Positions 22,748 through 46,077 of a DNA stretch of 64,000 nucleotides are shown one piece after another. The notes under the pieces were generated by a model that was not told where the DNA came from, searched no databases, and was given only the letters and a program-made list of their open reading frames with translations. This DNA comes from Actinernus sp. WN-2022 (Eukaryota; Cnidaria; Anthozoa; Actiniaria; Actinernidae), in the NCBI GenBank assembly GCA_030867875.1, contig JAOWCC010000019.1:108938047-109002046 (forward strand). The letters run 5' to 3'. How positions within the stretch are numbered: position 1 is the stretch's first letter; each line of letters opens with the position of its first letter. The translations under genes were made by a program, and so were the position numbers.

Positions 22748-23014
22748 ATCATGCTCTTGACGAGTGTCCGCTAACCGTATGTCTTGTACAGCCGTCTATT
22801 GCAGAAGAAGCTCCAGAGCTATCTCGACCCCTAGATGCATCCACCGAGAACGAGTCCAGAGTTGTCCTCGTATCAGGATTGGCTGCGGTCACAGCACAAG
22901 ACGCTGTGTTGAACTTCTTTGAGAACACGCAGCGATCGGGAGGTGGAGAGATAGAGGACCTTCAGATGAACAAAGAAAGTAGAACGGCAGAGATTACATT
23001 TTGTAGTGCTGATG
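22748..23014 (+). pseudogene. PARP14-like: PARP14-like exon B, broken copy B0
   Basis: Matches the intact exon B copies over their last 267 bases without an indel, and keeps the donor (GCTGATG|GTGGGC). The first 27 bases of the exon and its acceptor are replaced by unrelated AT-rich sequence. The two nearby CAG trinucleotides would give the wrong phase (4 or 17 bases before the homologous part, where a multiple of 3 is needed). Its substitutions relative to the others (EEAPELSR, VTAQDA, ENTQRS) make it the most diverged copy. Probably not spliced as a normal coding exon. Confidence 0.75.
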
Positions 23015-23161
23015 GTGGGCTAACATTTCTGTTTTTGGTTTTGATTTGGTAAAATAGACTCTCAATAGCTTAAAAATATTAACTTAATGCTACCTTAAGG
23101 GCCCATTGACATATTCCGTTGCTACCCAACACCTTTGCTATGCTCGCAGTAGCAGATCCGA

Positions 23162-23402
23162 GTGAGCCAAGGTTTTTACTTTTTGACTGCAACGTATAAC
23201 CCCACGGGGAACGACGGGACATGCCTTACAATATCCTAGAAGGGAGATACGTCACGCGACATTTTTCGCGACTCATAAAGACTCAACCCCTTAGAAACCC
23301 CGAAGGTTTTTTTTTGTCAAACTAAATGTTCCTGGTACCTCCCCTACTGAGTCGTTTTTTGGTCAACAACGTTGCAGCGAAAAAGTAAACACCTCGGCTC
23401 AC
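23162..23402. mobile_element. MITE with TIR GTGAGCCRAGGT (also at 31288-31527, inverted)
   Basis: Left GTGAGCCAAGGTTTTTACTT and right inverted GTGAGCCGAGGTGTTTACTT bound 241 bp. The same element occurs in U2 at 31288-31527 in the opposite orientation together with its flanks, and is absent from U3-U5. Confidence 0.65.
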
Positions 23403-23980
23403 AAAAACGAAAATGAAATGTGTTCAAATGTTGTCCTAAACTATAAGGCTTGCCAAAAAAATCACATCAGGAGTGAGAAAATACTTAAACAACTCACATA
23501 TGTGAATTGAATTAGACGGATTATGAAATTTGCAAAGAAATTCTGGGCGGTTTTCCCTTTCAATACTTTATAGCAAGGCGATCGTCAGCGAAAATCAGCG
23601 AACTGGTGTCAGTGAACTCAAACGCTTAAATCTCGTTCAAAACGTTCTCCAATGTCTTCAAACTAATACAGGCTACAGAATAATAAATAAGCAAACACAT
23701 TTAGCGGGTTTGTTTTACAGCTAGATAACTTTATTGTCCATTTTTCGGATGAGAAAGTACAATCAGTTTGGATCAGATAACGAAAATCAGCGAACAGGTA
23801 TCGGTGAACTCAAACGCTTAAATCTCGCTCAAAACATTATCCGGTGTCTTAAAACTAATGAAAACTACAGAATAATAAATAAGCTACACATTTAGCTGGT
23901 TCATTTCACAGCCAGATAACTTTATTGTCCGAATTTTAGGCTGCGAATGAACAATTTTGGGATAAAAACAAACAGACTAA

Positions 23981-24201
23981 GGGTGCGTTCGATTGACCGT
24001 ATTCCGGAATAGGAATAGATGGAATAGTCTCTGGAAATCACTGGTTCGGGCATATTTTGCACTGTAAGCTACAAATGCTTGCTGATATATGATATTCAGG
24101 ATACATTTAGTATTCCAGTGGCTAAAAACTCCCAGTAAACGTGATTTGTAGTGATCATTCTGTTTATTCTTATTCCGGAATACGGTCAATCGAACGCACC
24201 C
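23981..24201. mobile_element. Harbinger-type MITE, 221 bp, TSD TAA
   Basis: Both ends are GGGTGCGTTCGATTGACCGT in inverted orientation (31 bases perfect). Flanked by TAA at 23978-23980 and 24202-24204. The sister units read CAGACTAAGATAAATTC at this point, which is the exact empty site with a single TAA. A 3-bp TWA-type target and G-rich end fit the PIF/Harbinger superfamily. Confidence 0.85.
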
Positions 24202-24667
24202 TAAGATAAATTCACAACCACTCTCGCGCGGCAAATAAACCACAGGCAACCCACACGCATCAAAACTAACGTTTCGATCCAATCTTCCAATATTCTACTA
24301 TCGGTTAGGGACTCCCTGTGGTTTATCGTGTGAAAGAAAATAATACTTGACAAGAAACTCAATCCGATAATTTTGAAGGAATCGTTCAGGTACGAAAGGC
24401 GCCTAACTGTACTTGAACCTAGAGAAAGGGAAGTAATTAATAATTTGTACCGAGCAAAAAGGAAACAGCAAGCGTACAGCGCCGCCAACACAGTGATGAG
24501 TGAAAGCCGATGAATGGGAAAGCAAACTTGTATTGGACTATCCCGAGCTCTTCCCGCTGTTGATAGATTGAAAGAACATCTAGTAAATAGCCGATCTATA
24601 GTTGTCAAATATATAGAAGCTAAATTGGCTGCTTCCAGGGAGAACATGGCCTCTAAAACACGAAGAT

Positions 24668-24850
24668 GAATCAGTCAAAGTAGTCAATAAGAGACTGAAG
24701 AAGTTTTGTAATCAAAACGGTTGGAAGTTAATCGAACACAAGAATATCAGCACAAAAGACCTAAATAACAGCGGATTGCACTTAAACGAAGCAGGTAATG
24801 ATACAATTTATAATAATTTCGTAAAATGTCTAGACGGTTGCTTTACTTGA
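24668..24850 (+). pseudogene. CR1-like ORF1, C-terminal end (esterase-type motif)
   Basis: Open frame ending at the stop at 24848-24850. It contains LKKFCNQNGWKLIEH and GLHLNEAGN, the D/G-LH-x-N-x-x-G pattern that closes the SGNH esterase domain found in ORF1 of many CR1 elements. The 5' part of ORF1 is missing because the insertion is truncated. Confidence 0.65.
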
Positions 24851-25085
24851 TCTCTTGCAAACCTGAACAGGGGGGAAGGACACAACAGCCTAGGTCATCA
24901 AATTATCCAACCAAATTGCTCTTATACTTCGGACACTTGCATTCCTAATGTAAGTGAATCTTATTCTCAAAGCCAGAAGCCACCTACATGTACCTTTGGC
25001 ATTCCTAGCACCAGAGGTTTTAAGATAGCTTCTATTAATCTACTGAGCTAGTTTATATAAACATATTGATCAGCTTAGGATCTAT

Positions 25086-27842
25086 ATGTTGTCTAAATCT
25101 GTTGATATTTTGGCTATAAATGAGACACGACTTGACCATACTATTTCAAACGGTGAAGTTAATATTCCTGGATACGTCATTGAGAGGAAGGATCGAAATA
25201 GATCTGGAGGTGGTGTGGCTCTCTGCATTAGGAATACAATTAACTATAAACGCCTGACAAACCTCCGAGAAGACAATCTTGAGTTAATTTGCATTCAAAT
25301 AACCAAACCCAAGACCAAGCCCTTTATTATAGGAACTTGGTATAGACCTCCGGGGTCTGCCATTGAAATCATGAACAAATTCGAATTAACTCTGGAAGAT
25401 CTGGAAACCTATAATATGGAGGTTAATATTATTGGAGATTTAAACTGTGATGTAGGAGCCACGCCACCAGACCATAAAACTCAAAAATTATTAGATATGT
25501 GCAATGTGTACCAATATGACCAATTAATTAACCAGCCTACACGTGTAACACGGGATACATCCTCTACGATTGATTTGTTCTTAACAAATGATCCCTTAAA
25601 ATGTTCTCATGTTGGTGTTTCGGATATTGGTTTGAGTGATCACTACCTTGTATATGCTATAAGGAAAATTTGTACACCTAAGTCCAGCCCTAAGTTAGTA
25701 ACAAGCAGATGCTTCAAAAACTTTGACCCTGTCAGTTTCAGAAACGATCTTTTGATGGCCCCATGGCATCTTGTTGAGACTGAAAATGAACCAAACAGGG
25801 CATGGGAAATATGGCAACGAATGTTTCTACACATTGCTAATATTCATGCTCCCCTAAAGAAAAAGAGAGTAAGGGGTAATTCGGCCCTGGATCACACCAG
25901 AACTTAAAAAGCTAATGTTTGAAAGGGATAAATATAAGAAAATTGCTTCAAAATTTCCAACTGATGCCAACTGGACTAATTATAAGTTTTTAAAAAAACA
26001 ATGTAAATTATGCATTCAAAGCAGCTAAAATAGAATACTATAACAGCTATTTTAAAGAAAACTATGGCAATATCAAAAATACTTGGAAAGGAATAAACAA
26101 GATTTTGGGGAATGAATCACGATAATAAATAAACTTGAGGTAGGGGATAGCACATATAATACCCCCAGGGATATCAGTGCTACCTTAAATAAACATTTCT
26201 CAGAAATCGGGCCATCTCTAGCTTCAGAGATCCCAGACACGCCTTCCAAGTTCACAGATTACATCACTCCTACAGAACATACTTTCAATTTAGAACATAT
26301 TTCGAGTGATGAAATATTGAGATTAATTAATAAACTAGCATCAAACAAAGCCAGCGGGCTTGACAACATATCATCACGTCTTCTGAAGGAGGCTGCGCCG
26401 GTAGTTACCCACTCTTTAACTTTTATAATCAATTCTTCAATCGCTAGTGGAATTTTTCCAAGTGAATGGAAGCTTGCCAGAGTTTCCCCAATATTCAAAG
26501 ACGATAGTAAGACCGATCCTAACAATTATAGACCAATTTCGGTTTTACCTATCGTGAGTAAACTAATTGAAAGAATTGTTTTTAATCAATTTTATACATA
26601 CTTAAATGATAACAATCTATTAACTGAATCACAATCAGGTTTCAGACCCCTGTTCTCTACAGAAACTACTTTATTGGAAGCCACAAATGACTGGTTTAGA
26701 ACTATTGATAATAATCTCTTAAATGGTGTAATATTCCTAGACCTAAAGAAGGCTTTCGACACCATGAACCACTCTATTCTACTACAAAAACTTGAGCTTT
26801 ATGGTGTCAATTCTACATCTTTAGGTTGGTTTAGATCCTATCTCACAGAACGCAAGCAGAAAATCTTAGTTAATGGAGTGTTATCAGATTATTGTACCTT
26901 GAGCTATGGAATCCCACATGATCAATATTAGGTCCTCTATTATTTATCCTATATATTAATGATCTCCCGTCTTGTAATTTGTTCTCTAAAACAAGAATGT
27001 ATGCTGGTGATACCACCTTAACCACCACAGCTGAGGATCCTAATCTCCTCCAACTTCAAATGAATCATGATATGAACATTATTCAATCATGGTTACAAGC
27101 AAATAAATTAACACTAAATATTAAGAAAACTAAATACATGCTAATAGGGAGTCATTCTAAACTTTCTCAAGTACAAAATAACTTTAAAGTTGAGATAAAC
27201 AATATTCCGCTAAAAAGGGAGGTAGTCTATAAATCCCTTGGACTCCTTATAGATGAAAACCTAATCTGGGACTCGCATATTGATGCAGTTTCAAAGAAAA
27301 TATCTGCGGGTCTTGCAGTTTTAAAGCGTATAGGTCCTGCTATACCTTTTGAAACTCGATTAAGCATGTACAAGGCATTGATTTTACCATACTTTGATCA
27401 TTGTAGCTCTGTTTGGGGAAATATTGGCAAAGGACTATCTAATAGACTCCAACAACTACATAACAGAGCAGCAAGGATTATTACGCTCTCAAATTACGAA
27501 ACGCGATCTAGTGACTTATTGGATGAACTAGGCTGGGAAAAACTGGAACATAGGAGAACTAGACAACTTGCTATATTAATGTATAAAATCCACAACAATC
27601 TTTCTCCATTATATCTGAGAAAGATTTTTAATAATACTTCTATTGTCCACTCCTACAATCTGAGAAATTCTGAAATTAACTTGCATATTCCAAGACCTAA
27701 GTCAGAAGCAGCAAAATGTGGCCTTCACTACAGGGGGTCTGTCCTCTGGAATAAAATCCCTGTGGAAGCAAGAGATCAAACTAGTCTAAATGGTTTTAAA
27801 TCACGCCTATTAAATAAGACAATATTTGATAAATTACTGTAA
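25086..27842 (+). pseudogene. CR1-like ORF2: endonuclease and reverse transcriptase, frameshifted
   Basis: Endonuclease (25086-25907): LAINETRLD, SGGGVALCIR, TWYRPPGS, GDLNCDVG, STIDLFLTN and SDHYLVYA. The frame then breaks near 25880. RT palm and fingers (26317-26931): NKASGLDNISSRLLK, NYRPISVLPIVSKLIERIV, QSGFRPLFST, GVIFLDLKKAFDTMNH and SYGIP, followed by a second break near 26925. The catalytic box reads MYAGDTTL instead of YADD, so one metal-binding aspartate is lost. Thumb and C-terminal parts (26979-27842) end at TAA. Although structurally rather complete, this copy cannot encode an active enzyme. Confidence 0.9.
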
Positions 27843-28915
27843 ATTAAGTTATTCTAGGAAATTTATTGTAGGAAATTTATTGTAGGACTAATAGTAGTAG
27901 GTTTTGAATGTATACATAGTAATAATCATAATGATTCTTATGTAAATTTTACTTTTTATTTCATTTAGTACTGTAATTAAGCTTAACTCACGGCTCTCTG
28001 GAAGACCATATTTGTGAAATGACTCCGTGTTAAAATAAAGATTATGATGATGATTATGATGATGATGAAGAAAAGTACGGCCTCTCAAGAAGTCGAGTGA
28101 TTTTCGACCGGCAGGTTTTCAGTTCAAATCGTCCACAAACATGCACACGTTTGTCTCCAGATAATGCTTCCGGGTTTCTGGTAAAGTTGTGGTTGAACCT
28201 TAGTGCCACTAATTAAAGTTCAGGTTAGTTTTCATCCTTAAAAAGGTATTTTTGATGTCGGAAAACAAACTGTTGTGAACGCCACGAGATCAAGTGAAAG
28301 TGAAAGTTGTCGAATCTCGGTCTAATTTTAACTTCATATCTATTGGCTCTTCGGTTTGTCGCGAAATGGGTTCCTGGCATGTGCCACAAAGTCCAAAGCT
28401 CATTGCAGACAATCAAGCTGTAGCTCATTGCAGACTGGAGTATTCCGCCAAGCCCAAAAACTGGCCATTGTCGGAGGAAATAGGAGAAAATGCACATCCT
28501 GTTCGATCAATTATTGTAGACCTTACTGCAACAATAGTTCTGCGACTATTTCACGACCACAAAACAGGCACTTTTGCGCATGCGTTAATTTCTTCAGTTC
28601 CGGTTTCTAAAAATTCTAAACATTTAGCGCGCTTTCACTAAACACCAAACGTTTTCCCGCTAAAATGTTGTTGACCACGTTCTCTACAAATCGGGCATGG
28701 ATTTTGGAAACCGACAATAAATACCAAAGTTATGGCTTTTCATTCGCCAAAAATGCTTAAAATTGGACTGAAAAGTGTGGTAAAATCTTCATTTTTTGTT
28801 GTAATGGCAAACGCATGCTCGGTTTTATGCGCCTTTATTCGTAGGTTCGGAAAATATTCATAAATTACTTGTACATCAAAAATCCTTGGAGAGTTTAGAA
28901 ATTTTCTGATTTTCA

Positions 28916-28950
28916 TGACGTCATCGTGACGTCACTTGATGGACGTCATC
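28916..28950. promoter_or_regulatory. CRE/ATF-like site cluster in U1
   Basis: TGACGTCA, three bases, TGACGTCA, then GGACGTCA within 35 bases. TGACGTCA is the consensus site for CREB/ATF bZIP factors. The same cluster is in all five units, inside the TTAA element. Activity is untested. Confidence 0.5.
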
Positions 28951-29337
28951 AGACTACAAGACTTTACCCTAGGCGTCACCTTGACAATAATTATTGCCCA
29001 CTCTTTAATTTTCCGGGTTTTACGAGGTTTCAAACCTTTCCCTAGCAACGAATTTATGCACGCAATTAAATACGATCGTCAGTCAAACTATCTTATTATA
29101 ATGTCAGAAATATGTGTGTATTCTACATATAGGTACATTCTATTGTTTTACTATTTACGTTACTATTAGTTGCTTGACATTATGTACGAGGGACAGAGGA
29201 GGCCATTATTAGTTTAGTATTTTTGTTGTTGTTATCATCATTACTATTATTTTAGTTGTTACACCTTATATATTATTATTATTGTTATTATTATTAGTAG
29301 TAGTAGTAGTAGTAGTATTACTAGTAGTATTACTATT

Positions 29338-29882
29338 CAAGGGCACCCAACGAAGTTTTCGGTTAAAAAGCTGTTCGGGAGAGTAAGTTAGCCTAAAACT
29401 TTCGGATTTGAAAAAATTGTCTCTAGAAAATTGTTTTCTGAAATACTGGCTAGAAAATATGTTTTCAATCCCTAGAAAATTATAGAAGAAAAGGGAGACT
29501 AAAATGTTTCCCCTAAAATATTCGTACGTCCCAATTCGTCTGATCAATAGAGTCAGAACAACACATTTTCATTCCCTAAGAATTGCCTAAAGGAAAAAAG
29601 AATCCCTAAAAAATTCGTACCTCCACAAAACTTTGCAACATGTATATGTAGTTACTTGGGCTAGAAAATTCTTGTTTCTGTTCTAGACTACTAACAAATT
29701 CGTAGGCCGGAAATATTTTGCCATAGTATTTTCGGTTGACGCGATTTCCACCTAGAAAATCCGAACAGCTAATAGCTTTCTAGAATACGCCAAAAGACAT
29801 AGTAGGCGCCTTAAAATGGCTAGATAAGCTGCACACAACTGGTTTCAAACGAATTTCAAAAAGTACTCGTTGGGTGCCCTTG
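29338..29882. mobile_element. MITE with TIR CAAGGGCACCCAACGA, copy in U1
   Basis: The ends CAAGGGCACCCAACGA and TCGTTGGGTGCCCTTG bound 545 bp, with a repeated ACTATT at both flanks that may be target duplication within a microsatellite. The inside carries about eight CTAGAAAA-type words, which resemble subterminal transposase-binding repeats. It sits about 135 bp before the exon B1 acceptor, and the microsatellite next to it provides that exon's pyrimidine-rich tract. Probably hAT-like; not proven. Confidence 0.75.
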
Positions 29883-30016
29883 ACTATTACTAGTATTGCT
29901 ATTACTAGTATTACTATTACTAGTATTACTATTACTAGTATTACTATTACTAGTATTACTACTATTACTATTACTACTATTACTATTACCATTACTATTA
30001 TTATTTTTATTTTTAG

Positions 30017-30310
30017 TTGCTAAAAGAGTTCTGGAGAAGACAGATCATGCTCTTGACGAGTGTCCGCTGACCGTATGTCTTGTACAGCCGTCCATTGCAG
30101 AAGACGCTCCAGAGCTATCTCAACCCCTAGATGCATCCACCGAGAACGAGTCCAGAGTTGTCCTCGTATCAGGATTGGCTGCGGTCACAACACAAGACGC
30201 TGTGTTGAACTTCTTTGAGAACACGCGGCGATCGGGAGGTGGAGAGATAGAGGACCTTCAGATGAACAAAGAAAGTAGAACGGCAGAGATTACATTTTGT
30301 AGTGCTGATG
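30017..30310 (+). CDS. PARP14-like: PARP14-like gene, exon B1 (RRM module)
   Basis: A 294-base exon with acceptor TTTTTAG|TT and donor GATG|GTGGGC, phase 1 at both ends. It encodes the last strand of the preceding RRM (VAKRVLEKTDHALDECPLTV), a linker (PSIAEDAPELSQPLDAS) and most of the next RRM: VVLVSGLAAV as the RNP2-like strand, helix TTQDAVLNFFENT, turn RRSGGGEIEDL, and SRTAEITF as the RNP1-like strand. Joined after exon A, to another B, or before exon C it always completes an RRM, because B and C start with the same structural element. The variant residue here is Q in TTQDAV. Whether all copies are spliced in is unknown. Confidence 0.75.
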
Positions 30311-30761
30311 GTGGGCTAACATTTCTGTTTTTGGTTTTGATTTGGTAAAAATAATAGTCTCTCATGATCAATAGCTTTAAAATATTATTTTTTAATATTC
30401 CCCATGAAATTAGTTTTGCTATTTTAATGTAATAGTTTTGTTTTTGGTATCTTTAGTTTTAAAACCATTGCCGAAATCATAATAGATTGACATATTCCGT
30501 TGCTACGCAGCACCGTTGCTATGCTCGCAGGAGCAGATCCATTTTGACTTGCGGTTCAGTTATGCTTGCATAAGAAAACAGCCGAATCGGGCGATATGAG
30601 TCGGCTGTCAGTTTTCTCAGGTTTGTTTTATGCGTGTCCACCAGCCACAATAACTTGTTTGTAAGTTTTAATCGTGGTTTGCATGAAAGGTTTTCATGAA
30701 TGAATGAAGTAAAGTGTTCAAAAGTCGGAACAAGCCTTTTGTCGCTGGAAAATGAATAGCT

Positions 30762-32075
30762 TGGTTTATCGCACAGGGAGTCCCTAACCGATAGTAGAAT
30801 ATTGGAAGATTGGATCGAAACGTTAGTTTTGATGCGTGTGGGTTGCCTGTGGTTTATTTGCCGCGCGAGAGTGGTTGTGAATTTATCTTAGTCTGTTTGT
30901 TTTTATCCCAAAATCGTTCATTCGCAGCCTAAAATTCGGACAATAAAGTTATCTGGCTGTGAAATGAACCAGCTAAATGTGTAGCTTATTTATTATTCTG
31001 TAGTTTTCATTAGTTTTAAGACACCGGATAATGTTTTGAGCGAGATTTAAGCGTTTGAGTTCACCGATACCTGTTCGCTGATTTTCGCTGACCATCGCCT
31101 TGCAATAAAGTATTGAAAGGGAAGACACACCGTTCAGAAAACCGACCAGAATTCCTTAGCAAATTTCATAATCTCTAATTTAATTCACATATGTGAGTTG
31201 TTTAAGTATTTTCTCACTCCTGATGCGAATTTTTTGGCAAGCCTTATAGTTTAGGACAACATTTGAACACATTTTATTTTCGTTTTTGTGAGCCGAGGTG
31301 TTTACTTTTTCGCTGCAACGTTGTTGACCAAAAAACGACTCAGTAGGGAAGGTACCAGGAACATTTAGTTTGACAAAAAAATCCGTTCGGGGTTACTAAG
31401 GGTTGAGTCTTTATGAGTCGCGAAAAATGTCGCGTGACGTATCTCCCTTCTAGGATATGGTAAGGCATGTCCCGTCGTTCCCCGTAGGGTTATACGTTGC
31501 AGTCAAAAAGTAAAAACCTTGGCTCACCGTGTCTTCCCTTTCTAATACTTATACAGTAGTGAAAATGAGCGAACTGGTGTCAGTGAACTCAAACGCTTAA
31601 ATCTCGTTCAAAACGTTCTCCAATGTCTTCAAACTAATACAGGCTACAGAATAATAAATAAGCTACACATTTAGCGGGTTTGTTTTACAGCTAGATAACT
31701 TTATTGTCCATTTTTCGGATGAGAAAGTACAATTTTTGGATCAAATAACGAAAATCAGCGAACAGGTATCGGTGAACTCACACGCTTAAATCTCGCTCAA
31801 AACATTATCCGGTGTCTTAAAACTAATGAAAACTACAGAATAATAAATAAGCTATACATTTAGCTGGTTCATTTCACAGCCAGATAACTTTATTGTCCGA
31901 ATTTTAGGCTGCGAATGAACAATTTTGGGATAAAAACAAACAGACTAAGATAAATTCACAACCACTCTCGCGCGGCAAATAAACCACAGGCAACCTACAC
32001 GCATCAAAACTAACGTTTCGATACAATCTTCCAATATTCTACTATCGGTTAGGGACTCCCTGTGGTTTATCGTGT
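30762..32075. repeat. Large inverted repeat in U2, arms about 326 bp
   Basis: Arm 30762-31087 is the near-perfect inverse of 31748-32075 (for example CACAGGGAGTCCCTAACCG against the complement of GGTTAGGGACTCCCTGTGG). The spacer holds the GTGAGCC MITE and a second diverged copy of the loop sequence (31560-31690). Confidence 0.8.
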
Positions 32076-32321
32076 GAAAGAAAATAATACATGACAAGAA
32101 ACTCAATCCGATAATTTTGAAGGAATCGTTCAGGTACGAAAGGCGCCTAACTGTACTTGAACCGAGAGAAAGGGAAGTAATTAATAATTTGTACCGAACA
32201 AAAAGGTAACAGCAAGCGTACAGCGCCGCCAACACAGTGATGAGTGAAAGCCGATGAATGGGAAAGCAAACTTGTATTGGACTATCCCGAGCTCTTCCCG
32301 CTGTTGATAGATTGAAAGAAC

Positions 32322-32632
32322 TACTAGATCCTCTTCAGAGAGATCCACATTGCTATAGCGCTTGTTCACATCTCTAGCTCCCACACGTGTAGCGTGGTGG
32401 CTGGGGTTTAAAGCAGCTTTCGAGCTCGCCGCTAGAGTAACCAGATTCTGAGGCCTTTGATCTAAAGTGAGGCTGACGGTCTTGGGGGCTATGCCATGCT
32501 GATGAGTCCCTAACAAGGACGAAACAGCTGTACATGGTTGCCACTCTACCGGTAATAAGATGTGAGCATGCGTATTAGACGCTAGCTACGTCATAGCGTG
32601 TGTTGTGTAGTGCCATGCAACGAGTTTGGTAT
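32322..32632 (+). mobile_element. Ribozyme-bearing insertion, retrozyme-like, about 310 bp
   Basis: U3-U5 read GAAAGAACATCTAGTAAATAG then TATCTATAG at this point. U2 has about 310 extra bases and has lost the short ATCTAGTAAATAG word. The insert is non-coding and contains a complete hammerhead core (32494-32537). Size, lack of ORF and a single type I hammerhead fit metazoan retrozymes, which are known to spread as small circular RNAs; a terminal piece of a Penelope-like element is the main alternative. Clear target duplications are not seen. Confidence 0.6.
32494..32537 (+). ncRNA. Hammerhead ribozyme, type I, short helix III
   Basis: All conserved core parts are present in order: CTGATGA (32499-32505), helix II GTCC/GGAC closed by a CTAACAA loop (32506-32520), GAAA (32521-32524), and helix III formed by ACAG/CTGT with no loop (32524-32531), followed by A at 32532 as the cleavage residue. 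Helix I pairs CCATG (32494-32498) with CATGG (32533-32537); a further GGC/GCC pairing outside is possible. The self-complementary ACAGCTGT helix III is typical of hammerheads that cleave better as dimers. Predicted cut after 32532. Confidence 0.85.
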
Positions 32633-34569: not shown

Positions 34570-34649
34570 ACTATTACTAGTATTGCTATTACTACTATTA
34601 CTATTACTACTATTACTATTACCATTACTATTATTATTTTTATTTTTAG

Positions 34650-35391: not shown

Positions 35392-35900
35392 TGGTTTATC
35401 GCACAGGGAGTCCCTAACCGATAGTAGAATATTGGAAGATTGGATCGAAACGTTACTTTTGATGCGTGTGGGTTGCCTGTGGTTTATTTGCCGCGCGAGA
35501 GTGGTTGTGAATTTATGGTTGGTTTTCTGAACGGTGTGTCTTCACTTTCAATACTTTATAGCAAGGCGATCGTCAGCGAAAATCAGCGAACAGGTATCGG
35601 TGAACTCACACGCTTAAATCTCGCTCAAAACATTATCCGGTGTCTTAAAACTAATGAAAACTACAGAATAATAAATAAGCTATACATTTAGCTGGTTCAT
35701 TTCACAGCCAGATAACTTTATTGTCCGAATTTTAGGCTGCGAATGAACAATTTTGGGATAAAAACAAACAGACTAAGATAAATTCACAACCACTCTCGCG
35801 CGGCAAATAAACCACAGGCAACCTACACGCATCAAAACTAACGTTTCGATACAATCTTCCAATATTCTACTATCGGTTAGGGACTCCCTGTGGTTTATCG
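35392..35900. repeat. Hairpin in U3 with loop in orientation 1
   Basis: Arms 35392-35516 and 35778-35900 are inverted copies (GTGAATTTAT / ATAAATTCAC at the inner edges). The 261-base loop begins GGTTGGTTTTCTGAACGG and ends AACAAACAGACTAAG, the reverse of the order in U4 and U5. Confidence 0.85.
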
Positions 35901-37085
35901 TGTGAAAGAAAATAATACATGACAAGAAACTCAATCCGATAATTTTGAAGGAATCGTTCAGGTACGAAAGGCGCCTAACTGTACTTGAACCGAGAGAAAG
36001 GGAAGTAATTAATAATTTGTACCGAACAAAAAGGTAACAGCAAGCGTACAGCGCCGCCAACACAGTGATGAGTGAAAGCCGATGAATGGGAAAGCAAACT
36101 TGTATTGGACTATCCCGAGCTCTTCCCGCTGTTGATAGATTGAAAGAACATCTAGTAAATAGTATCTATAGTTGTCAAATATATAGAAGCTAAATTGGCT
36201 GCTTCCAGGGCCGGGAGAACATGGCCTCTAAAACACGAAGAAAAGTACGGCCTCTCAAGAAGTCGAGTGATTTTCGACCGGCAGCTTTTCAATTCAAATC
36301 GTCCACAAACATGCACACGTTTGTCTCCAGATAATGCTTCCGGGTTTCTGGTAAAGTTGTGGTTGAACCTTAGTGCCACTAATTAAAGTTCAGGTCAGTT
36401 TTCATCCTTAAAAAGATATTTTTGATGTCGGAAAACAAACTGTTGTGAACGCCACGAGATCAACTTCAAGTGAAAGTTGTCGAATCTCGGTCTAATTTTA
36501 GCTTCATTTCTATTGGCCCTTCGGTTTGTCGCTAAATGGGTTCCTGGCATGTGCCACAAAGTCCAAAGCTCATTGCAGACAATCAAGCTGTAGCTCATTG
36601 CAGACTGGAGTATTCCGCCAAGCCCCAAAACTGGCCATTGTCGGAGGAAATAGGAGAAAATGCACATCCTGTTCGATCAATTATTGTAGACCTTACTGCA
36701 ACAATAGTTCTGCGACTATTTCACGACCACAAAACAGGCACTTTTGCGCATGCGTTAATTTCTTCAGTTCCGGTTTCTAAAAATTCTAAACATTTAGCGC
36801 GCTTTCACTAAACACCAAACGTTTTCCCGCTAAAATGTTGTTGACCACGTTCTCTACAAATTGGGCATGGATTTTGGAAACCGACAATAAATACCAAAGT
36901 TATGGCTTTTCATTCGCCAAAAATGCTTAAAATTGGACTGAAAAGTGTGGTAAAATCTTCATTTTTTGTTGTAATGGCAAACGCATGCTCGGTTTTATGC
37001 GCCTTTATTCGTAGGTTCGGAAAATATTCATAAATTACTTGTACATCAAAAATCCTTGGAGAGTTTAGAAATTTTCTGATTTTCA

Positions 37086-37120
37086 TGACGTCATCGTGAC
37101 GTCACTTGATGGACGTCATC
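37086..37120. promoter_or_regulatory. CRE/ATF-like site cluster in U3
   Basis: Two TGACGTCA sites three bases apart plus GGACGTCA. Confidence 0.5.
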
Positions 37121-37522
37121 AGACTACAAGACTTTACCCTAGGCGTCACCTTGACAATAATTATTGCCCACTCTTTAATTTTCCGGGTTTTACGAGGCTT
37201 CAAACCTTTCCCTAGCAACGAATTTATGCACGCAATTAAATACGATCGTCAGTCAAACTATCTTATTATAATGTCAGAAATATGTGTGTATTCTACATAT
37301 AGGTACATTCTATTGTTTTACTATTCACATTACTATTAGTTGCTTGACATTATGTACGAGGGACAGAGGAGGCCATTATTAGTTTAGTATTTTTGTTGTT
37401 GTTATCATCATTACTATTATTTTAGTTGTTACACCTTATATATTATTATTATTGTTATTATTATTATTAGTAGTAGTAGTAGTAGTAGTATTACTAGTAG
37501 TATTACTAGTAGTATTACTATT

Positions 37523-38066
37523 CAAGGGCACCCAACGAAGTTTTCGGTTAAAAAGCTGTTCGGGAGAGTAAGTTAGCCTAAAACTTTCGGATTTGAAAAA
37601 ATTGTCTCTAGAAAATTGTTTTCTGAAATACTGGCTAGAAAATATGTTTTCAATCCCTAGAAAATTATAGAAGAAAAGGGAGACTAAAATGTTTCCCCTA
37701 AAATATTCGTACGTCCCAATTCGTCTGATCAATAGAGTCAGAACAACACATTTTCATTCCCTAAGAATTGCCTAAAGGAAAAAAGAATCCCTAAAAAATT
37801 CGTACCTCCACAAAACTTTGCAACATGTATATGTAGTTACTTGGGCTAGAAAATTCTTGTTTCTGTTCTAGACTACTAACAAATTCGTAGGCCGGAAATA
37901 TTTTGCCATAGTATTTTCGGTTGACGCGATTTCCACCTAGAAAATCCGAACAGCTAATAGCTTTCTAGAATACGCCAAAAGACATAGTAGGCGCCTTAAA
38001 ATGGCTAGATAAGCTGCACACAACTGGTTTCAAACGAATTTCAAAAAGTACTCGTTGGGTGCCCTT
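37523..38066. mobile_element. CAAGGGCACCC MITE, copy in U3
   Basis: 544 bp, same ends and internal words as the other copies. Confidence 0.75.
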
Positions 38067-38147
38067 GACTATTACTAGTATTGCTATTACTACTATTACT
38101 ATTACTACTATTACTATTACCATTACTATTATTATTTTTATTTTTAG

Positions 38148-38441
38148 TTGCTAAAAGAGTTCTGGAGAAGACAGATCATGCTCTTGACGAGTGTCCGCTG
38201 ACCGTATGTCTTGTACAGCCGTCCATTGCAGAAGACGCTCCAGAGCTATCTCAACCCCTAGATGCATCCACCGAGAACGAGTCCAGAGTTGTCCTCGTAT
38301 CGGGGTTGGCTGCGGTCACGACACGAGACGCTGTGTTGAACTTCTTTGAGAACACGCGGCGATCGGGAGGTGGAGAGATAGAGGACCTTCAGATGAACAA
38401 AGAAAGTAGAACGGCAGAGATTACATTTTGTAGTGCTGATG
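38148..38441 (+). CDS. PARP14-like: PARP14-like gene, exon B3 (RRM module)
   Basis: 294 bases, phase 1-1, TTTTTAG|TT acceptor and GATG|GTGGGC donor. Carries the TTRDAV variant shared only with B2; I saw no base difference between B2 and B3, so they are a very recent duplication or have been homogenised by gene conversion. Confidence 0.75.
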
Positions 38442-38891
38442 GTGGGCTAACATTTCTGTTTTTGGTTTTGATTTGGTAAAAATAATAGTCTCTCATGATC
38501 AATAGCTTTAAAATATTATTTTTTAATATTCCCCATGAAATTAGTTTTGCTATTTTAATGTAATAGTTTTGTTTTTGGTATCTTTAGTTTTAAAACCTTT
38601 GCCGAAATCATAATAGATTGACATATTCCGTTGCTACGCAGCACCGTTGCTATGCTCGCAGGAGCAGATCGATTTTGACTTCCGGTTCAGTTATGCTTGC
38701 ATAAGAAAACAGCCGAATCGGGCGATATGAGTCGGCTGTCAGTTTTCTCAGGTTAGTTTTATGCGTGTCCACCAGCCACAATAACTTGTTTGTAAGTTTT
38801 AATCGTGGTTTGCATGAAAGGTTTTCATGAATGAATGAAGTAAAGTGTTCAAAAGTCGGAACAAGCCTTTTGTCGCTGGAAAATGAATAGC

Positions 38892-39391
38892 TTGGTTTAT
38901 CGCACAGGGAGTCCCTAACCGATAGTAGAATATTGGAAGATTGGATCGAAACGTTAGTTTTGATGCGTGTGGGTTGCCTGTGGTTTATTTGCCGCGCGAG
39001 AGTGGTTGTGAATTTATCTTAGTCTGTTTGTTTTTATCCCAAAATTGTTCATTCGCAGCCTAAACTTCGGACAATAAAGTTATCTGGCTGTGAAATGAAC
39101 CAGCTAAATGTGTAGCTCATTTATTATTCTGTAGTTTTAAGACACCGGATAATGTTTTGAGCGAGATTTAAGCGTGTGAGTTCACCGATACCTGTTCGCT
39201 GATTTTCGCTGACGATCGCCTTGCTATAAAGTATTGAAAGGGAAGTCACACCGTTCAGAAAACCGACCATAAATTCACAACCACTCTCGCGCGGCAAATA
39301 AACCACAGGCAACCCACACGCATCAAAATTAACGTTTCGATCCAATCTTCCAATATTCTACTATCGGTTAGGGACTCCGTGTGGTTTATCG
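38892..39391. repeat. Hairpin in U4 with loop in orientation 2
   Basis: Arms 38892-39017 and 39269-39391. The loop begins CTTAGTCTGTTTG and ends TTCAGAAAACCGACC, inverted relative to U3. Confidence 0.85.
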
Positions 39392-40573
39392 TGTGAAAGA
39401 AAATAATACGTGACAAGAAACTCAATCCGATAATTTTGAAGGAATCGTTCAGGTTCGAAAGGCGCCTAACTGTACTTGAACCGAGAGAAAGGGAAGTAAT
39501 TAATAATTTGTACCGAACAAAAAGGTAACAGCAAGCGTACAGCGCCGCCAACACAGTGATGAGTGAAAGCCGATGAATGGGAAAGCAAACTTGTATTGGG
39601 CTATCCCGAGCTCTTCCCGCTGTTGATAGATTGAAAGAACATCTAGTAAATAGTATCTATAGTTGTCAAATATATAGAAGCTAAATTGGCTGCTTCCAGG
39701 GAGAACATGGCCTCTAAAACACGAAGAAAAGTACGGCCTCTCAAGAAGTCGAGTGATTTTCGACCGGCAGGTTTTCAATTCAAATCGTCCACAAACATGC
39801 ACACGTTTGTCTCCAGATAATGCTTCCGGGCTTCTGGTAAAGTTGTGGTTGAACCTTAGTGCCACTAATTAAAGTTCAGGTCAGTTTTCATCCTTAAAAA
39901 GGTATTTAGTTGATGTCGGAAAACAAACTGTTGTGAATGCCACGAGATCAACTTCAAGTGAAAGTTGTCGAATCTCGGTCTAATTTTAGCTTCATTTCTA
40001 TTGGCTCTTCCGTTTGTCGCGAAATGGGTTCCTGGCATGTGCCACAAAGTCCAAAGCTCATTGCAGACAATCAAGCTGTAGCTCATTGCAGACTGGAGTA
40101 TTCCGCCAAGCCCAAAAACTGGCCATTGTCGGAGGAAATAGGAGAAAATGCACATCCTGTTCGATCAATTATTGTAGACCTTACTGCAACAATAGTTCTG
40201 CGACTATTTCACGACCACAAAACAGGCACTTTTGCGCATGCGTTAATTTCTTCAGTTCCGGTTTCTAAAAATTCTAAACATTTAGCGCGCTTTCACCAAA
40301 CACCAAACGTTTTCCCGCTAAAATGTTGTTGACCACGTTCTCTACAAATCGGGCATGGATTTTGGAAACCGACAATAAATACCAAAGTTATGGCTTTTCA
40401 TTCGCCAAAAATGCTTAAAATTGGACTGAAAAGTGTGGTAAAATCTTCATTTTTTGTTGTAATGGCAAACGCATGCTCGGTTTTATGCGCCTTTATTCGT
40501 AGGTTCGGAAAATATTCATAAATTACTTGTACATCAAAAATCCTTGGAGAGTTTAAAAAATTTCTGATTTTCA

Positions 40574-40608
40574 TGACGTCATCGTGACGTCACTTGATGG
40601 ACGTCATC
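40574..40608. promoter_or_regulatory. CRE/ATF-like site cluster in U4
   Basis: Two TGACGTCA sites three bases apart plus GGACGTCA. Confidence 0.5.
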
Positions 40609-41050
40609 AGACAACAAGACTTTACCCTAGGCGTCACCTTGACAATAATTATTGCCCACTCTTTAATTTTCCGGGTTTTACGAGGCTTCAAACCTTTCCC
40701 TAGCAACGGCCGATTTAAATATGTCAATGGGCCCTTACCGTAGTAAATTTATGCACGCAATTAAATACGATCGTCAGTCAAACTATCTTATTATAATGTC
40801 AGAAATATGTGTGTATTCTACATATAGGTACATTCTATTGTTTTACTATTTACGTTACTATTAGTTGCTTGACATTATGTACGAGGGACAGAGGAGGCCA
40901 TTATTAGTTTAGTATTTTTGTTGTTGTTATCATCATTACTATTATTTTAGTTGTTACACCTTATATATTATTATTATTGTTATTATTATTATTAGTAGTA
41001 GTAGTAGTAGTAGTAGTATTACTAGTAGTATTACTAGTAGTATTACTATT

Positions 41051-41589
41051 CAAGGGCACCCAACGAAGTTTTCGGTTAAAAAACTGTTCGGGAGAGTAAG
41101 TTAGCCTAAAACTTTCGGATTTGAAAAAAATGTCTCTAGAAAATTGTTTTCTTAAATACTGGCTAGAAAATATGTTTTCAATCCCTAGAAAATTATAGAA
41201 GAAAAGGGAGACTAAAATGTTTCCCCTAAAATATTCGTACGTCCCAATTCGTCTGATCAATAGAGTCAGAACAACACATTTTCATTCCCTAAGAATTGCC
41301 TAAAGGAAAAAAGAATCCCTAAAAAATTCGTACCTCCACAAAACTTTACAACATGTAGTTACTTGGGCTAGAAAATTCTTGTTTCTGTTCTAGACTACTA
41401 ACAAATCCGTAGCCCGGGAATATTTTGCCATAGTATTTTCGGTTGACGCGATTTCCACCTAGAAAATCCGAACAGCTAATAGCTTTCTAGAATACGCCAA
41501 AAGACATAGTAGGCGCCTTAAAATGGCTAGATAAGCTGCACACAACTGGTTTCAAACGAATTTCAAAAAGTACTCGTTGGGTGCCCTTG
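41051..41589. mobile_element. CAAGGGCACCC MITE, copy in U4
   Basis: 539 bp; shares with the U5 copy the loss of a short ATGTAT step near ACATGTAGTTACTTGG. Confidence 0.75.
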
Positions 41590-41744
41590 ACTATTACTAG
41601 TATTGCTATTACTAGTATTACTATTACTAGTATTACTATTACTAGTATTACTACTATTACTATTACTACTATTACTACTATTACTACTATTACTACTATT
41701 ACTACTATTACTATTACCATTACTATTATTATTTTTATTTTTAG

Positions 41745-42038
41745 TTGCTAAAAGAGTTCCGGAGAAGGCAGATCATGCTCTTGACGAGTGTCCGCTGACC
41801 GTATGTCTTGTACAGCCGTCCATTGCAGAAGACGCTCCAGAGCTATCTCAACCCCTAGATGCATCCACCGAGAACGAGTCCAGAGTTGTCCTCGTATCAG
41901 GATTGGCTGCGGTCACAACACAAGACGCTGTGTTGAACTTCTTTGAGAACACGCGGCGATCGGGAGGTGGAGAGATAGAGGACCTTCAGATGAACAAAGA
42001 AAGTAGAACGGCAGAGATTACATTTTGTAGTGCTGATG
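41745..42038 (+). CDS. PARP14-like: PARP14-like gene, exon B4 (RRM module)
   Basis: 294 bases, phase 1-1. The protein starts VAKRVPEKADHALDE, with two substitutions (P, A) relative to the other copies, and carries TTQDAV. It is preceded by the longest ACT/ATT microsatellite of the array (about 41595-41735). Confidence 0.75.
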
Positions 42039-42478
42039 GTGGGCTAACATTTTTGTTTTTGGTTTTGATTTGGTAAAAATAATAGTCTCTCATGATCAAA
42101 AGCTTTGAAATATTATTTTTTAATATTCCCCATGAAATTAGTTTTTCTATTTTAATGTAATAGTTTTGTTTTTGGTATCTTTAGTTTTAAAACCTTTGCC
42201 GAAATCATAATAGATTGACATATTCCGTTGCTACGCAACACCGTTGCTATGCTCGCAGGAGCAGATCGATTTTGACTTCCGGTTCAGTTATGCTTGCATA
42301 AGAAAACAGCCGAATCGGGCGATATGAGTCGGCTGTCAGTTTTCTCAGGTTAGTTTTATGCGTGTCCACCAGCCACAATAACTTGTTTGTAAGTTTTAAT
42401 CGTGGTTTGCATGAAATGAATGAAGTAAAGTGTTCAAAAGTCGGAACAAGCCTTTTGTCGCTGGAAAATGAATAGCTT

Positions 42479-42986
42479 GGTTTATCGCACAGGGAGTCCC
42501 TAACCGATAGTAGAATATTGGAAGATTGGATCGAAACGTTAGTTTTGATGCGTGTGGGTTGCCTGTGGTTTATTTGCCGCGCGAGAGTGGTTGTGAATTT
42601 ATCTTAGTCTGTTTGTTTTTATCCCAAAATTGTTCATTCGCAGCCTAAACTTCGGACAATAAAGTTATCTGGCTGTGAAATGAACCAGCTAAATGTGTAG
42701 CTCATTTATTATTCTGTAGTTTTCATTAGTTTTAAGACACCGGATAATGTTTTGAGCGAGATTTAAGCGTGTGAGTTCACCGATACCTGTTCGCTGATTT
42801 TCGCTGACGATCGCCTTGCTATAAAGTATTGAAAGGGAAGTCACACCGTTCAGAAAACCGACCATAAATTCACAACCACTCTCGCGCGGCAAATAAACCA
42901 CAGGCAACCCACACGCATCAAAATTAACGTTTCGATCCAATCTTCCAATATTCTACTATCGGTTAGGGTCTCCGTGTGGTTTATCG
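42479..42986. repeat. Hairpin in U5 with loop in orientation 2
   Basis: Arms 42479-42602 and 42864-42986; loop order as in U4. Confidence 0.85.
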
Positions 42987-44161
42987 TGTGAAAGAAAATA
43001 ATACGTGACAAGAAACTCAATCCGATAATTTTGAAGGAATCGTTCAGGTTCGAAAGGCGCCTAACTGTACTTGAACCGAGAGAAAGGGAAGTAATTAATA
43101 ATTTGTACCGAACAAAAAGGTAACAGCAAGCGTACAGCGCCGCCAACACAGTGATGAGTGAAAGCCGATGAATGGGAAAGCAAACTTGTATTGGGCTATC
43201 CCGAGCTCTTCCCGCTGTTGATAGATTGAAAGAACATCTAGTAAATAGTATCTATAGTTGTCAAATATATAGAAGCTAAATTGGCTGCTTCCAGGGAGAA
43301 CATGGCCTCTAAAACACGAAGAAAAGTACGGCCTCTCAAGAAGTCGAGTGATTTTCGACCGGCAGGTTTTCAATTCAAATCGTCCACAAACATGCACACG
43401 TTTGTCTCCAGATAATGCTTCCGGGCTTCTGGTAAAGTTGTGGTTGAACCTTAGTGCCACTAATTAAAGTTCAGGTCAGTTTTCATCCTTAAAAAGGTAT
43501 TTAGTTGATGTCGGAAAACAAACTGTTGTGAATGCCACGAGATCAACTTCAAGTGAAAGTTGTCGAATCTCGGTCTAATTTTAGCTTCATTTCTATTGGC
43601 TCTTCCGTTTGTCGCGAAATGGGTTCCTGGCATGTGCCACAAAGTCCAAAGCTCATTGCAGACAATCAAGCTGTAGCTCATTGCAGACTGGAGTATTCCG
43701 CCAAGCCCAAAAACTGGCCATTGTCGGAGGAAATAGGAGAAAATGCACATCCTGTTCGATCAATTATTGTAGACCTTACTGCAACAATAGTTCTGCGACT
43801 ATTTCACGACCACAAAACAGGCACTTTTGCGCATGCGTTAATTTCTTCAGTTCCGGTTTCTAAAAATTCTAAACATTTAGCGCGCTTTCACCAAACGTTT
43901 TCCCGCTAAAATGTTGTTGACCACGTTCTCTACAAATCGGGCATGGATTTTGGAAACCGACAATAAATACCAAAGTTATGGCTTTTCATTCGCCAAAAAT
44001 GCTTAAAATTGGACTGAAAAGTGTGGTAAAATCTTCATTTTTTGTTGTAATGGCAAACGCATGCTCGGTTTTATGCGCCTTTATTCGTAGGTTCGGAAAA
44101 TATTCATAAATTACTTGTACATCAAAAATCCTTGGAGAGTTTAAAAAAATTCTGATTTTCA

Positions 44162-44196
44162 TGACGTCATCGTGACGTCACTTGATGGACGTCATC
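44162..44196. promoter_or_regulatory. CRE/ATF-like site cluster in U5
   Basis: Two TGACGTCA sites three bases apart plus GGACGTCA. Confidence 0.5.
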
Positions 44197-44638
44197 AGAC
44201 AACAAGACTTTACCCTAGGCGTCACCTTGACAATAATTATTGCCCACTCTTTAATTTTCCGGGTTTTACGAGGCTTCAAACCTTTCCCTAGCAACGGCCG
44301 ATTTAAATATGTCAATGGGCCCTTACCGTAGTAAATTTATGCACGCAATTAAATACGATCGTCAGTCAAACTATCTTATTATAATGTCAGAAATATGTGT
44401 GTATTCTACATATAGGTACATTCTATTGTTTTACTATTTACGTTACTATTAGTTGCTTGACATTATGTACGAGGGACAGAGGAGGCCATTATTAGTTTAG
44501 TATTTTTGTTGTTGTTATCATCATTACTATTATTTTAGTTGTTACACCTTATATATTATTATTATTGTTATTATTATTATTAGTAGTAGTAGTAGTAGTA
44601 GTAGTATTACTAGTAGTATTACTAGTAGTATTACTATT

Positions 44639-45176
44639 CAAGGGCACCCAACGAAGTTTTCGGTTAAAAAACTGTTCGGGAGAGTAAGTTAGCCTAAAAC
44701 TTTCGGATTTGAAAAAAATGTCTCTAGAAAATTGTTTTCTTAAATACTGGCTAGAAAATATGTTTTCAATCCCTAGAAAATTATAGAAGAAAAGGGAGAC
44801 TAAAATGTTTCCCCTAAAATATTCGTACGTCCCAATTCGTCTGATCAATAGAGTCAGAACAACACATTTTCATTCCCTAAGAATTGCCTAAAGGAAAAAA
44901 GAATCCCTAAAAAATTCGTACCTCCACAAAACTTTACAACATGTAGTTACTTGGGCTAGAAAATTCTTGTTTCTGTTCTAGACTACTAACAAATTCGTAG
45001 CCCGGGAATATTTTGCCATAGTATTTTCGGTTGACGCGATTTCCACCTAGAAAATCCGAACAGCTAATAGCTTTCTAGAATACGCCAAAAGACATAGTAG
45101 GCGCCTTAAAATGGCTAGATAAGCTGCACACAACTGGTTTCAAACGAATTTCAAGAAGTACTCGTTGGGTGCCCTT
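44639..45176. mobile_element. CAAGGGCACCC MITE, copy in U5
   Basis: 538 bp, same ends and internal CTAGAAAA words; nearest to the U4 copy. Confidence 0.75.
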
Positions 45177-45311
45177 GACTATTACTAGTATTGCTATTAC
45201 TAGTATTACTATTACTAGTATTACTATTACTAGTATTACTATTACTAGTATTACTACTATTACTATTACTACTATTACTATTACCATTACTATTATTATT
45301 TTTATTTTTAG

Positions 45312-45605
45312 TTGCTAAAAGAGTTCTGGAGAAGACAGATCATGCTCTTGACGAGTGTCCGCTGACCGTATGTCTTGTACAGCCGTCCATTGCAGAAGAC
45401 GCTCCAGAGCTATCTCAACCCTTAGATGCATCCACCGAGAACGAGTCCAGAGTTGTCCTCGTATCAGGATTGGCTGCGGTCACAACACAAGACGCTGTGT
45501 TGAACTTCTTTGAGAACACGCGGCGATCGGGAGGTGGAGAGATAGAGGACCTTCAGATGAACAAAGAAAGTAGAACGGCAGAGATTACATTTTGTAGTGC
45601 TGATG
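45312..45605 (+). CDS. PARP14-like: PARP14-like gene, exon B5 (RRM module)
   Basis: 294 bases, phase 1-1, with TTTTTAG|TT acceptor and GATG|GTGGGC donor; protein as B1. It is only 229 bases from exon C, in the shortest intron of the gene. That intron lacks the TTAA element and keeps what looks like its unoccupied target (TTAATTAACG near 45701). As the copy next to C, it may be the original second exon from which the array grew. Confidence 0.85.
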
Positions 45606-45834
45606 GTGGGCTAACATTTCTGTTTTTGGTTTTGATTTGGTAAAAATAAGTTTTAAAACCTTTGCCGAAATCATAATAGTCATTTTTTTATTTTGCTACC
45701 TTAATTAACGTAGTAAACGTATGCACGCATTTTAATACGATCGTCAGTCAAACTATCTTATTATAATGTCATGCATATGTGTGTATTCTACATGTAGGTA
45801 CATTCTATTGTTTTACTATTTACGTTACTATTAG

Positions 45835-46077
45835 TTGCTCGACGAGTGGTCGGAAAGGAATCCCTCGTCCTAGACGGAGCTTCAGTGACTGTCAGACTTA
45901 AAGAAATTCCACGAGCCCAGCCCATAGACCCGTCCAGGCTTCATGTTACAGGACTTAGTGACAAAACTAGCACTGACGGACTCCAGTCCTACTTGGAAGT
46001 GGTCAGCGGACAAGTGGTGGCGAGCATGCTCTTTGGTAGCAATTCGAATGTTTTGGTAACGTTCAAAGAGCTGCCTG
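45835..46077 (+). CDS. PARP14-like: PARP14-like gene, exon C (RRM module)
   Basis: 243 bases with acceptor TATTAG|TT and donor CCTG|GTGAGT, phase 1-1. Starts VARRVVGKESLVLDGASVTV (end of the previous RRM, as in exon B), then a linker and a new RRM (RLHVTGLSDKTSTDGLQSYLE, GQVVASMLF, NVLVTFKEL). It is clearly paralogous to exon B in its first third. The splice with B5 and with D keeps the frame. Confidence 0.85.

What the first reader, a model, noticed from the sequence alone, without database searches (positions are those of the whole stretch)
22748..46077. Tandem array of near-identical RRM exons in a PARP14-like gene
Five intact copies and one broken copy of a 294-base exon, each with acceptor and donor and phase 1 at both ends, precede exon C. 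Any number of copies can be spliced in without a frameshift, and each B-to-B junction (CSAD-V-AKRV) rebuilds a normal RRM strand. The locus could therefore make PARP14-like proteins with variable RRM number, or choose among copies. PARP14-type genes act in antiviral and stress responses, so variable RNA-binding valency would be meaningful.
Basis: partly seen in the sequence, partly recalled or inferred. Interest (0 to 1): 0.88.

Follow-up and report, generated by a model that had tools for sequence, protein, structure and literature searches.

The report
Young five-copy RRM exon array
In one gene of an animal's PARP14-like family, a single RNA-binding exon has recently been copied into five in a row without breaking the reading frame, much like the kringle repeat of the human LPA gene; whether cells use the extra copies is not known.

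Summary
Five intact 294-nt copies of exon B start at 30017, 34650, 38148, 41745 and 45312, with identical splice-site contexts and phase 1 at both ends; a sixth, at 22751-23014, is broken. The gene is PARP14-like, with RRM, macro, WWE and PARP catalytic exons. It is one of four paralogous genes on one contig; the other three each hold one B, so the array is specific to this gene. Its birth can be read: tandem duplication from about 100 bp before B to the start of exon C, then insertions, then exchange between units. Any number of B keeps the frame, and a B-B join scores as a full RRM (50.7 bits); but a single-copy paralogue's B joined to itself scores 49.6, so the fit is no evidence of use. 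Exon copies are as diverged as introns. Most likely: a coding VNTR like LPA KIV-2, all copies spliced in. Rival: skipping helped by inverted intronic repeats. Choice among copies is weak (proteins 97-100% identical). No transcript, read or population data were available.

The parts
9975..10140 (+). Exon A: first coding exon found (starts MCERTVYV), first RRM up to its third strand, donor G|GTAAGC, phase 1
   Evidence: Pfam RRM_PARP14_1 28.4 bits for the ORF alone, 45.4 bits when joined to B
22751..23014 (+). B0: broken copy of exon B, about the first 30 nt and the acceptor missing
   Evidence: shares the shorter form of the following intron with 3 of 3 single-copy paralogues
25047..27842 (+). 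LINE-like insertion between B0 and B1 (endonuclease and reverse transcriptase ORFs in separate frames)
   Evidence: Exo_endo_phos 8.3e-11, RVT_1 6.3e-16 for two of the ORFs
28067..31151 (+). Repeat unit 1 (intron part plus B1 and downstream intron), extent from pairwise matches
30017..30310 (+). Exon B1, 294 nt, phase 1-1
32630..35516 (+). Repeat unit 2
34650..34943 (+). Exon B2 (Q to R at exon site 178; four A-to-G differences in 24 nt, shared with B3)
36160..39017 (+). Repeat unit 3
38148..38441 (+). Exon B3 (identical to B2)
39651..42602 (+). Repeat unit 4
41745..42038 (+). Exon B4 (L to P and T to A near its start)
43246..45649 (+). Repeat unit 5 (ends just after B5)
45312..45605 (+). Exon B5
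29051..29178 (+). Relic in unit 1: end of the B-C intron with the C acceptor and first bases of C; marks the first duplication junction
33716..33856 (+). Same relic in unit 2
37221..37348 (+). Same relic in unit 3
40733..40873 (+). Same relic in unit 4
44321..44461 (+). Same relic in unit 5
30772..31151 (-). Inverted-repeat (MITE-like, by its form) element, intron B1-B2, minus orientation
31749..32249 (+). Part of the same element in the same intron B1-B2, plus orientation
35402..35892 (+). Same element, intron B2-B3, plus orientation; 97-98% complementary to the minus copies in introns B1-B2 and B4-B5
38903..39383 (-). Same element, intron B3-B4, minus orientation (a partial plus copy adjoins)
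42488..42978 (-). Same element, intron B4-B5, minus orientation (a partial plus copy adjoins)
45835..46077 (+). Exon C, 243 nt, phase 1-1
46286..46519 (+). Exon D, 234 nt, phase 1-1
   Evidence: Pfam RRM_PARP14_3 43 bits
47715..50095 (+). Exon E: KH-like region and a macro domain (right end is the ORF end; the donor was not placed)
61176..61526 (+). Macro-domain ORF (exon ends not placed)
   Evidence: Pfam Macro 40 bits
62233..63141 (+). Macro-domain ORF, two stretches (exon ends not placed); WWE and PARP catalytic ORFs follow past the window
   Evidence: Pfam Macro 100.6 bits; L009:649-1062, 1555-1986, 2969-3274

Best explanation
A young coding tandem repeat (an intragenic VNTR of the LPA KIV-2 kind) inside a PARP14-like gene. 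One RRM exon with phase 1 at both ends was duplicated together with flanking intron, and the unit then grew and multiplied by unequal exchange and gene conversion. Because all five copies carry the same splice sites and each 294-nt exon keeps the frame, the likely product has all five copies spliced in: A, five B, C, D and the start of E building eight RRMs (four if only one B is used) ahead of the KH-like, macro, WWE and catalytic parts. RRM number would then be set mainly by genomic copy number and could differ between alleles. Shown: anatomy, frame, cluster, order of the early events. Inferred: inclusion of all copies, copy-number polymorphism, any effect on RNA binding.
For: Identical acceptor and donor contexts in 5 of 5 copies, exon lengths that are multiples of three. 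Both virtual transcripts tested are open. On RRM_PARP14_3: B-B join 50.7 bits, B-C 44.6, B read into its intron 34.7. WWE and PARP domains downstream, colinear with the next paralogue. 3 of 3 other genes that have a B have one B, each followed by C and D. The relic of the B-C intron plus C acceptor is in 5 of 5 units, followed in 5 of 5 by an 89-nt stretch 92% identical to the intron end before B in a paralogue. Conflicting site patterns among units (8 sites u2+u3, 4 sites u2+u4+u5) require exchange between units. LPA precedent: KIV-2 exons 98-100% identical, over 40 isoforms by copy number (PMC7613587, passages).
Against: No RNA evidence. Exon copies differ as much as introns do (pairs 0-2.0% against 0.16-1.25%), so nothing shows that the extra copies were kept by selection; with 7 variable exon sites in all, their being intact is weak evidence. 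The B-B fit is matched by a single-copy paralogue. B4 carries a proline where the others have leucine (48.2 against 50.2 bits). The donor ATG|GTGGGC is a weak match to consensus (recalled), though 3 of 3 single-copy paralogues have it too. Each unit holds a relic C acceptor that would open on a stop in the phase of B. The join C-D is below the RRM cut-off (16.3 bits). Assembly copy number is unverified.
Confidence: 0.55

Rival explanations
1. Variable RRM number by splicing: inverted copies of a MITE-like element in the introns pair across B exons in the pre-mRNA, loop them out, and give a mixture of mRNAs with one to five B (and perhaps circular B RNAs).
For: The element of intron B2-B3 is inverted relative to the main minus copies of introns B1-B2, B3-B4 and B4-B5. 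Predicted duplexes across B2 (378 nt, -676 kcal/mol), across B3 (491 nt, -883) and across B3+B4 (491 nt, -901). Papers seen only as a listing with abstract starts tie such repeats to circular RNAs. The products tested stay in frame.
Against: Intron B1-B2 also holds a plus copy that competes (-572 kcal/mol at 598 nt), and the element's own ends are complementary, so even same-way copies pair (-524). Energies of naked RNA say little about a nascent transcript. No RNA data.
Confidence: 0.28
2. Bystander array: transcripts use one B (for instance B5 next to C) and the other copies are skipped or lie in unused intron; the array is neutral debris of a TE-rich locus.
For: Introns of 3-4 kb with insertions; B0 already broken; no lower divergence in exons than introns; weak donor; exon E is frame-broken in 2 of 3 paralogues, so genes of this cluster do decay.
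Against: Same splice signals in 5 of 5; to reach B5 alone, exon A must pass over four acceptors identical to that of B5.
Confidence: 0.12
3. Assembly artefact: fewer units in the genome, extra ones made by the assembler from alleles or stutter.
For: Units 4 and 5 differ by only 0.16% in the intron; reads are not held.
Against: Units differ in private sites and indels, in spacing (4633, 3498, 3597, 3567) and in element orientation. The DNA searches found no copy of exon B or exon E on any other contig (9 and 4 matches). B0, in an older state, flanks the array.
Confidence: 0.05

Closest known systems
Human LPA kringle IV type 2 repeat (coding VNTR)
   Same: Near-identical multi-kb units (5.6 kb there, about 3.5 kb here) with short in-frame domain exons inside one gene, beside a related pseudogene (LPAL2 there, PMC7613587 passage; a frame-broken paralogue here).
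   Different: LPA has 1-40 units per allele (PMC11462820, listing) with known protein isoforms; here neither polymorphism nor product is known. LPA uses two exons per kringle, this array one exon shifted against the domain.
Human PARP14 and PARP14-like genes of invertebrates
   Same: RRM, macro, WWE and catalytic domains (KH-like only below cut-off here); clustered duplicates (PMC4245714 passages; PMC13224862 section 9).
   Different: Human PARP14 has three RRMs (PMC13224862 passage); here up to eight could be built. No RRM exon array was seen in the listings.
Tandem exon duplications with mutually exclusive choice (recalled: Dscam; UGT1A in PMC9013439, section read)
   Same: Head-to-tail copies of one exon before shared exons.
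   Different: There the copies encode different protein stretches; here they are 97-100% identical in protein.
Obscurin repeated exons (PMC9013439, section read)
   Same: Exons multiplied by tandem duplication with repeats in the introns.
   Different: Those exons are much more diverged (about 79% identity is quoted for the regions shown) than the copies here.

Membership tests
PARP14-like gene | PARP14-type RRMs | tested here: met
   A-B, B-B, B-C and D-E joins score 43-78 bits on RRM_PARP14_3 (cut-off 24); the C-D join scores 16.3, below it
PARP14-like gene | macro domains | tested here: met
   Pfam Macro in exon E, 61176-61526 and 62233-63141
PARP14-like gene | KH-like domains | tested here: inconclusive
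   KH_PARP14 and KH_1 models match exon E at 15-18 bits, below cut-off
PARP14-like gene | WWE and PARP catalytic domain downstream in the same gene | tested here: met
   L009: WWE 41.3 bits, PARP 27.0 and 50.4 bits; same order in the next paralogue. That one transcript joins them is inferred; the exons between E and the catalytic part were not modelled
PARP14-like gene | catalytic activity, induction by infection | not testable with these tools
   needs experiments
Coding VNTR of the LPA KIV-2 kind | near-identical multi-kb units with in-frame exons in one gene | tested here: met
Coding VNTR of the LPA KIV-2 kind | copy number differs between alleles | not testable with these tools
   one assembly; no second haplotype of the locus found among its contigs
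Coding VNTR of the LPA KIV-2 kind | all copies present in mRNA and protein | not testable with these tools
   no RNA data
Mutually exclusive exon array | copies that differ in encoded protein | tested here: not met
   3 variable residues in 98; B2 and B3 identical, B1 and B5 identical in protein
Mutually exclusive exon array | exactly one copy per transcript | not testable with these tools
   no RNA data; joining several copies would not break the frame

The most novel reading that the evidence does not exclude
An antiviral-type ADP-ribosyltransferase whose RNA-binding valency is tunable: the number of RRMs varies between alleles through a coding exon VNTR, and within a cell through pairing of inverted intronic elements that skip B exons, so that one gene yields proteins with four to eight RRMs beside a cluster of paralogues with a single B.
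Probability: 0.2. Interest if true: 0.75.

Novelty: new member of a known kind. Interest (0 to 1): 0.45.

Why it matters
PARP14-type genes duplicate often and evolve fast, which is put down to conflict with viruses (PMC13224862 section 9); the duplications described there are of genes or large parts of genes. Here a single RNA-binding module has multiplied within one gene while three neighbours have one copy, which gives a natural comparison set for asking what RRM number does in this family. It is also a young LPA-like coding repeat whose first steps can be read.

Tried and rejected
Relatives elsewhere: a protein search with exon E scored the 7993 best candidates, none at E 0.001; a genome-contig scan with exon E gave 16 pattern matches, none confirmed; a viral-contig scan with exon B gave 599, none confirmed. 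The comparison therefore rests on the window's own genome, the PDB and Pfam. The species was not identified. Rfam and ARAGORN (bacterial setting) found nothing in the window.

Rejected: that the good B-B join shows adaptation (control with a single-copy paralogue). Rejected: that intact copies show selection (few changes). Left open: the four A-to-G differences of B2 and B3 in 24 nt (4 of the 8 u2+u3 sites fall that close in 0.03% of 200,000 uniform random placements on 2150 sites); two are shared with paralogue L028, two with none of the other copies, so gene conversion explains at most part. dN/dS between this gene and the next paralogue (few changes): A 0, macro ORFs 0.26-0.44, E 0.27 and 0.74, WWE 0.41, the ORF between macro and WWE 0.42, catalytic ORFs 0.82 and 1.07, B 0.39-1.14, C 1.77, D 0.53; this shows constraint on some parts only, and not clearly on B.

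Structure prediction was not used, since the spliced B-B protein is not contiguous in the DNA. A literature search of rare terms together found nothing, another a single irrelevant paper. Scripts that only waited; one search printed help text and waited, and built no tree; searches also waited.
Full report
WHAT IS THERE. The window lies at C888:108938047-109002046 of a 1.39-Gb, 1772-contig genome; C888 is 112 Mb long. That it is an animal is inferred from gene content; the species is not given. Seven of 294 sites vary among the five; three change a residue (L/P and T/A in B4, Q/R in B2 and B3); B2 and B3 are identical.

THE GENE. Exon A (9975-10140), the B copies, C (45835-46077), D (46286-46519) and E (from 47715) meet at phase 1; B, C and D are 294, 243 and 234 nt. 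By comparison with the PARP10 RRM and the known order of strands in an RRM, each exon starts after the third strand of one RRM and ends at the same point of the next, so every join completes one RRM. On Pfam RRM_PARP14_3 (cut-off 24 bits) the joins A-B, B-B, B-C and D-E score 43.3, 50.7, 44.6 and 77.8; C-D scores 16.3; B running into its own intron scores 34.7 over profile positions 2-50 instead of 2-71. Two B exons end to end match the PARP10 RRM 2dhx across the join (E 0.00029). Downstream come macro domains in the window, then WWE (41.3 bits) and the PARP catalytic domain in two ORFs (27.0 and 50.4 bits) in the next 10 kb (L009). KH models match exon E only below cut-off. The exons between E and the catalytic part were not modelled, so that one transcript joins all of this is inferred, helped by the same order in the next paralogue. 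With one B the gene would build four RRMs, with five eight, counting the weak C-D one.

THE CLUSTER. A 294-base query of exon B (shifted 13 nt into the acceptor) has 9 DNA matches in the genome, all on C888: the five, B0, and one each in three other genes. A 1586-base piece of exon E has 4 matches, all on C888. So four such genes lie within about 0.3 Mb, and the other three have a single B followed by C and D. The next gene downstream (79-102 kb in window coordinates) matches this one in long stretches at about 92-93%, introns included, with unalignable stretches between. Exon E is frame-broken in 2 of 3 paralogues (L031, L033), and free of stops in L032. All three paralogues carry another RRM-like piece, X, a few hundred bp before B; its status as an exon is uncertain, and no counterpart was found in the array gene. 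A search with RRM_PARP14_3 gave 37 matches in the genome (67 candidates, all scored): 13 in this cluster and 24 elsewhere, mostly a second group at C888:83.2-84.4 Mb and a few on C235 and C942. I looked at 6 of those 24: none resembles exon B beyond one weak 18-residue stretch, and two show short internal repeats that I did not study. Whether any other RRM exon of that group is arrayed was not tested further.

HOW IT AROSE. In 5 of 5 units, a relic of the end of the B-C intron with the C acceptor and the first bases of C stands upstream of B, followed after a short filler by an 89-nt stretch 92% identical to the end of the intron before B in a paralogue. The first event was therefore a tandem duplication from roughly 100 bp before B to just inside C. 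Insertions then enlarged the unit to about 3.5 kb, and exchange between units multiplied it: of 45 two-state sites, 8 join u2+u3 and 4 join u2+u4+u5, which no single tree explains. B0 shares the shorter form of the following intron with 3 of 3 paralogues, against B1-B4, so it branched first. The five units differ by 0.16-1.25% in introns and 0-2.0% in exons, against several percent between the genes: the array is young, and its exons are no more conserved than its introns.

HOW IT MOST LIKELY WORKS. The splice sites do not tell one copy from another, so the simplest expectation is that all five are spliced in and that genomic copy number sets RRM number, as in LPA KIV-2, a 5.6-kb coding repeat with 98-100% identical exons that gives over 40 isoforms (PMC7613587, passages; PMC11462820 and PMC6314250, search listing only). 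This is inference. A real rival is skipping: the element of intron B2-B3 is inverted relative to the main copies of the neighbouring introns, with long predicted duplexes across B2 and B3. Such repeats are linked to circular RNAs in papers that I saw only as a listing with abstract starts. A plus copy in intron B1-B2 and self-complementary element ends compete. Choice among copies is unlikely to matter, since they are 97-100% identical in protein.

CONTROLS AND RESULTS AGAINST THE EXCITING READING. A single-copy paralogue's B joined to itself scores 49.6 bits, as good as the array's 50.7: the fit comes from the shared exon phase, not from selection for an array. With 7 variable sites among five copies, intactness is expected about as often as not (my estimate, no call). 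B4's proline and alanine cost 2 bits (48.2 against 50.2). Relic C acceptors, if joined in the phase of B, open on a stop in 5 of 5 and could yield dead transcripts. dN/dS with the next paralogue shows no clear constraint on B, C or D (0.39-1.77).

NOVELTY. PARP14-like genes are known to be duplicated and clustered (PMC4245714 passages; PMC13224862 section 9), and human PARP14 has three RRMs (PMC13224862 passage). I saw no report of an RRM exon array in a PARP gene in the listings (20 of 113 papers shown; 20 of 75; 10 of 311; 5 of 6); these cover open-licence papers only. I file it as a new member of a known kind: a coding tandem exon repeat, in a gene family where I had not seen one.

Noticed in passing
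29160-29180, 33838-33858, 37330-37350, 40855-40875, 44443-44463: A ghost exon-C acceptor stands about 0.8 kb before each B; joined in the phase of B it reads V-A-stop. Possible poison acceptor.
   Followed up: partly
34804-34827 and 38302-38325: B2 and B3 carry four A-to-G differences within 24 nt; two are shared with paralogue L028, two with none of the other copies.
   Followed up: partly
51077-54945: Retroelement between exon E and the next macro ORF, with an integrase-end-like and an env-like ORF by eye (recalled motifs); the three pieces scanned gave no match over a Pfam cut-off. Observed only.
   Followed up: no
C888:108926286-108926450 (window -11760 to -11596): An orphan copy of exon A, identical in protein, in a 2.2-kb duplicate 94% identical to 9432-11561.
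   Followed up: no
C888:83.2-84.4 Mb: A second group of PARP14-type RRM matches on the same contig, by their spacing perhaps several paralogues with about three RRM exons each; only some loci were looked at.
   Followed up: partly
L011:2484-2759 and the same place in L027, L028: RRM-like piece X before B in all three single-B paralogues, not found in the array gene; a 67-nt stretch is missing in the copy of the next gene downstream.
   Followed up: partly
14742-15816 (-): LINE-like pair: an ORF with a PHD-finger match followed by an endonuclease-like ORF.
   Followed up: no
127613-127957 (window coordinates, beyond the window): A further fragment resembling the PARP catalytic exon, downstream of the next paralogue (by eye).
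   Followed up: no
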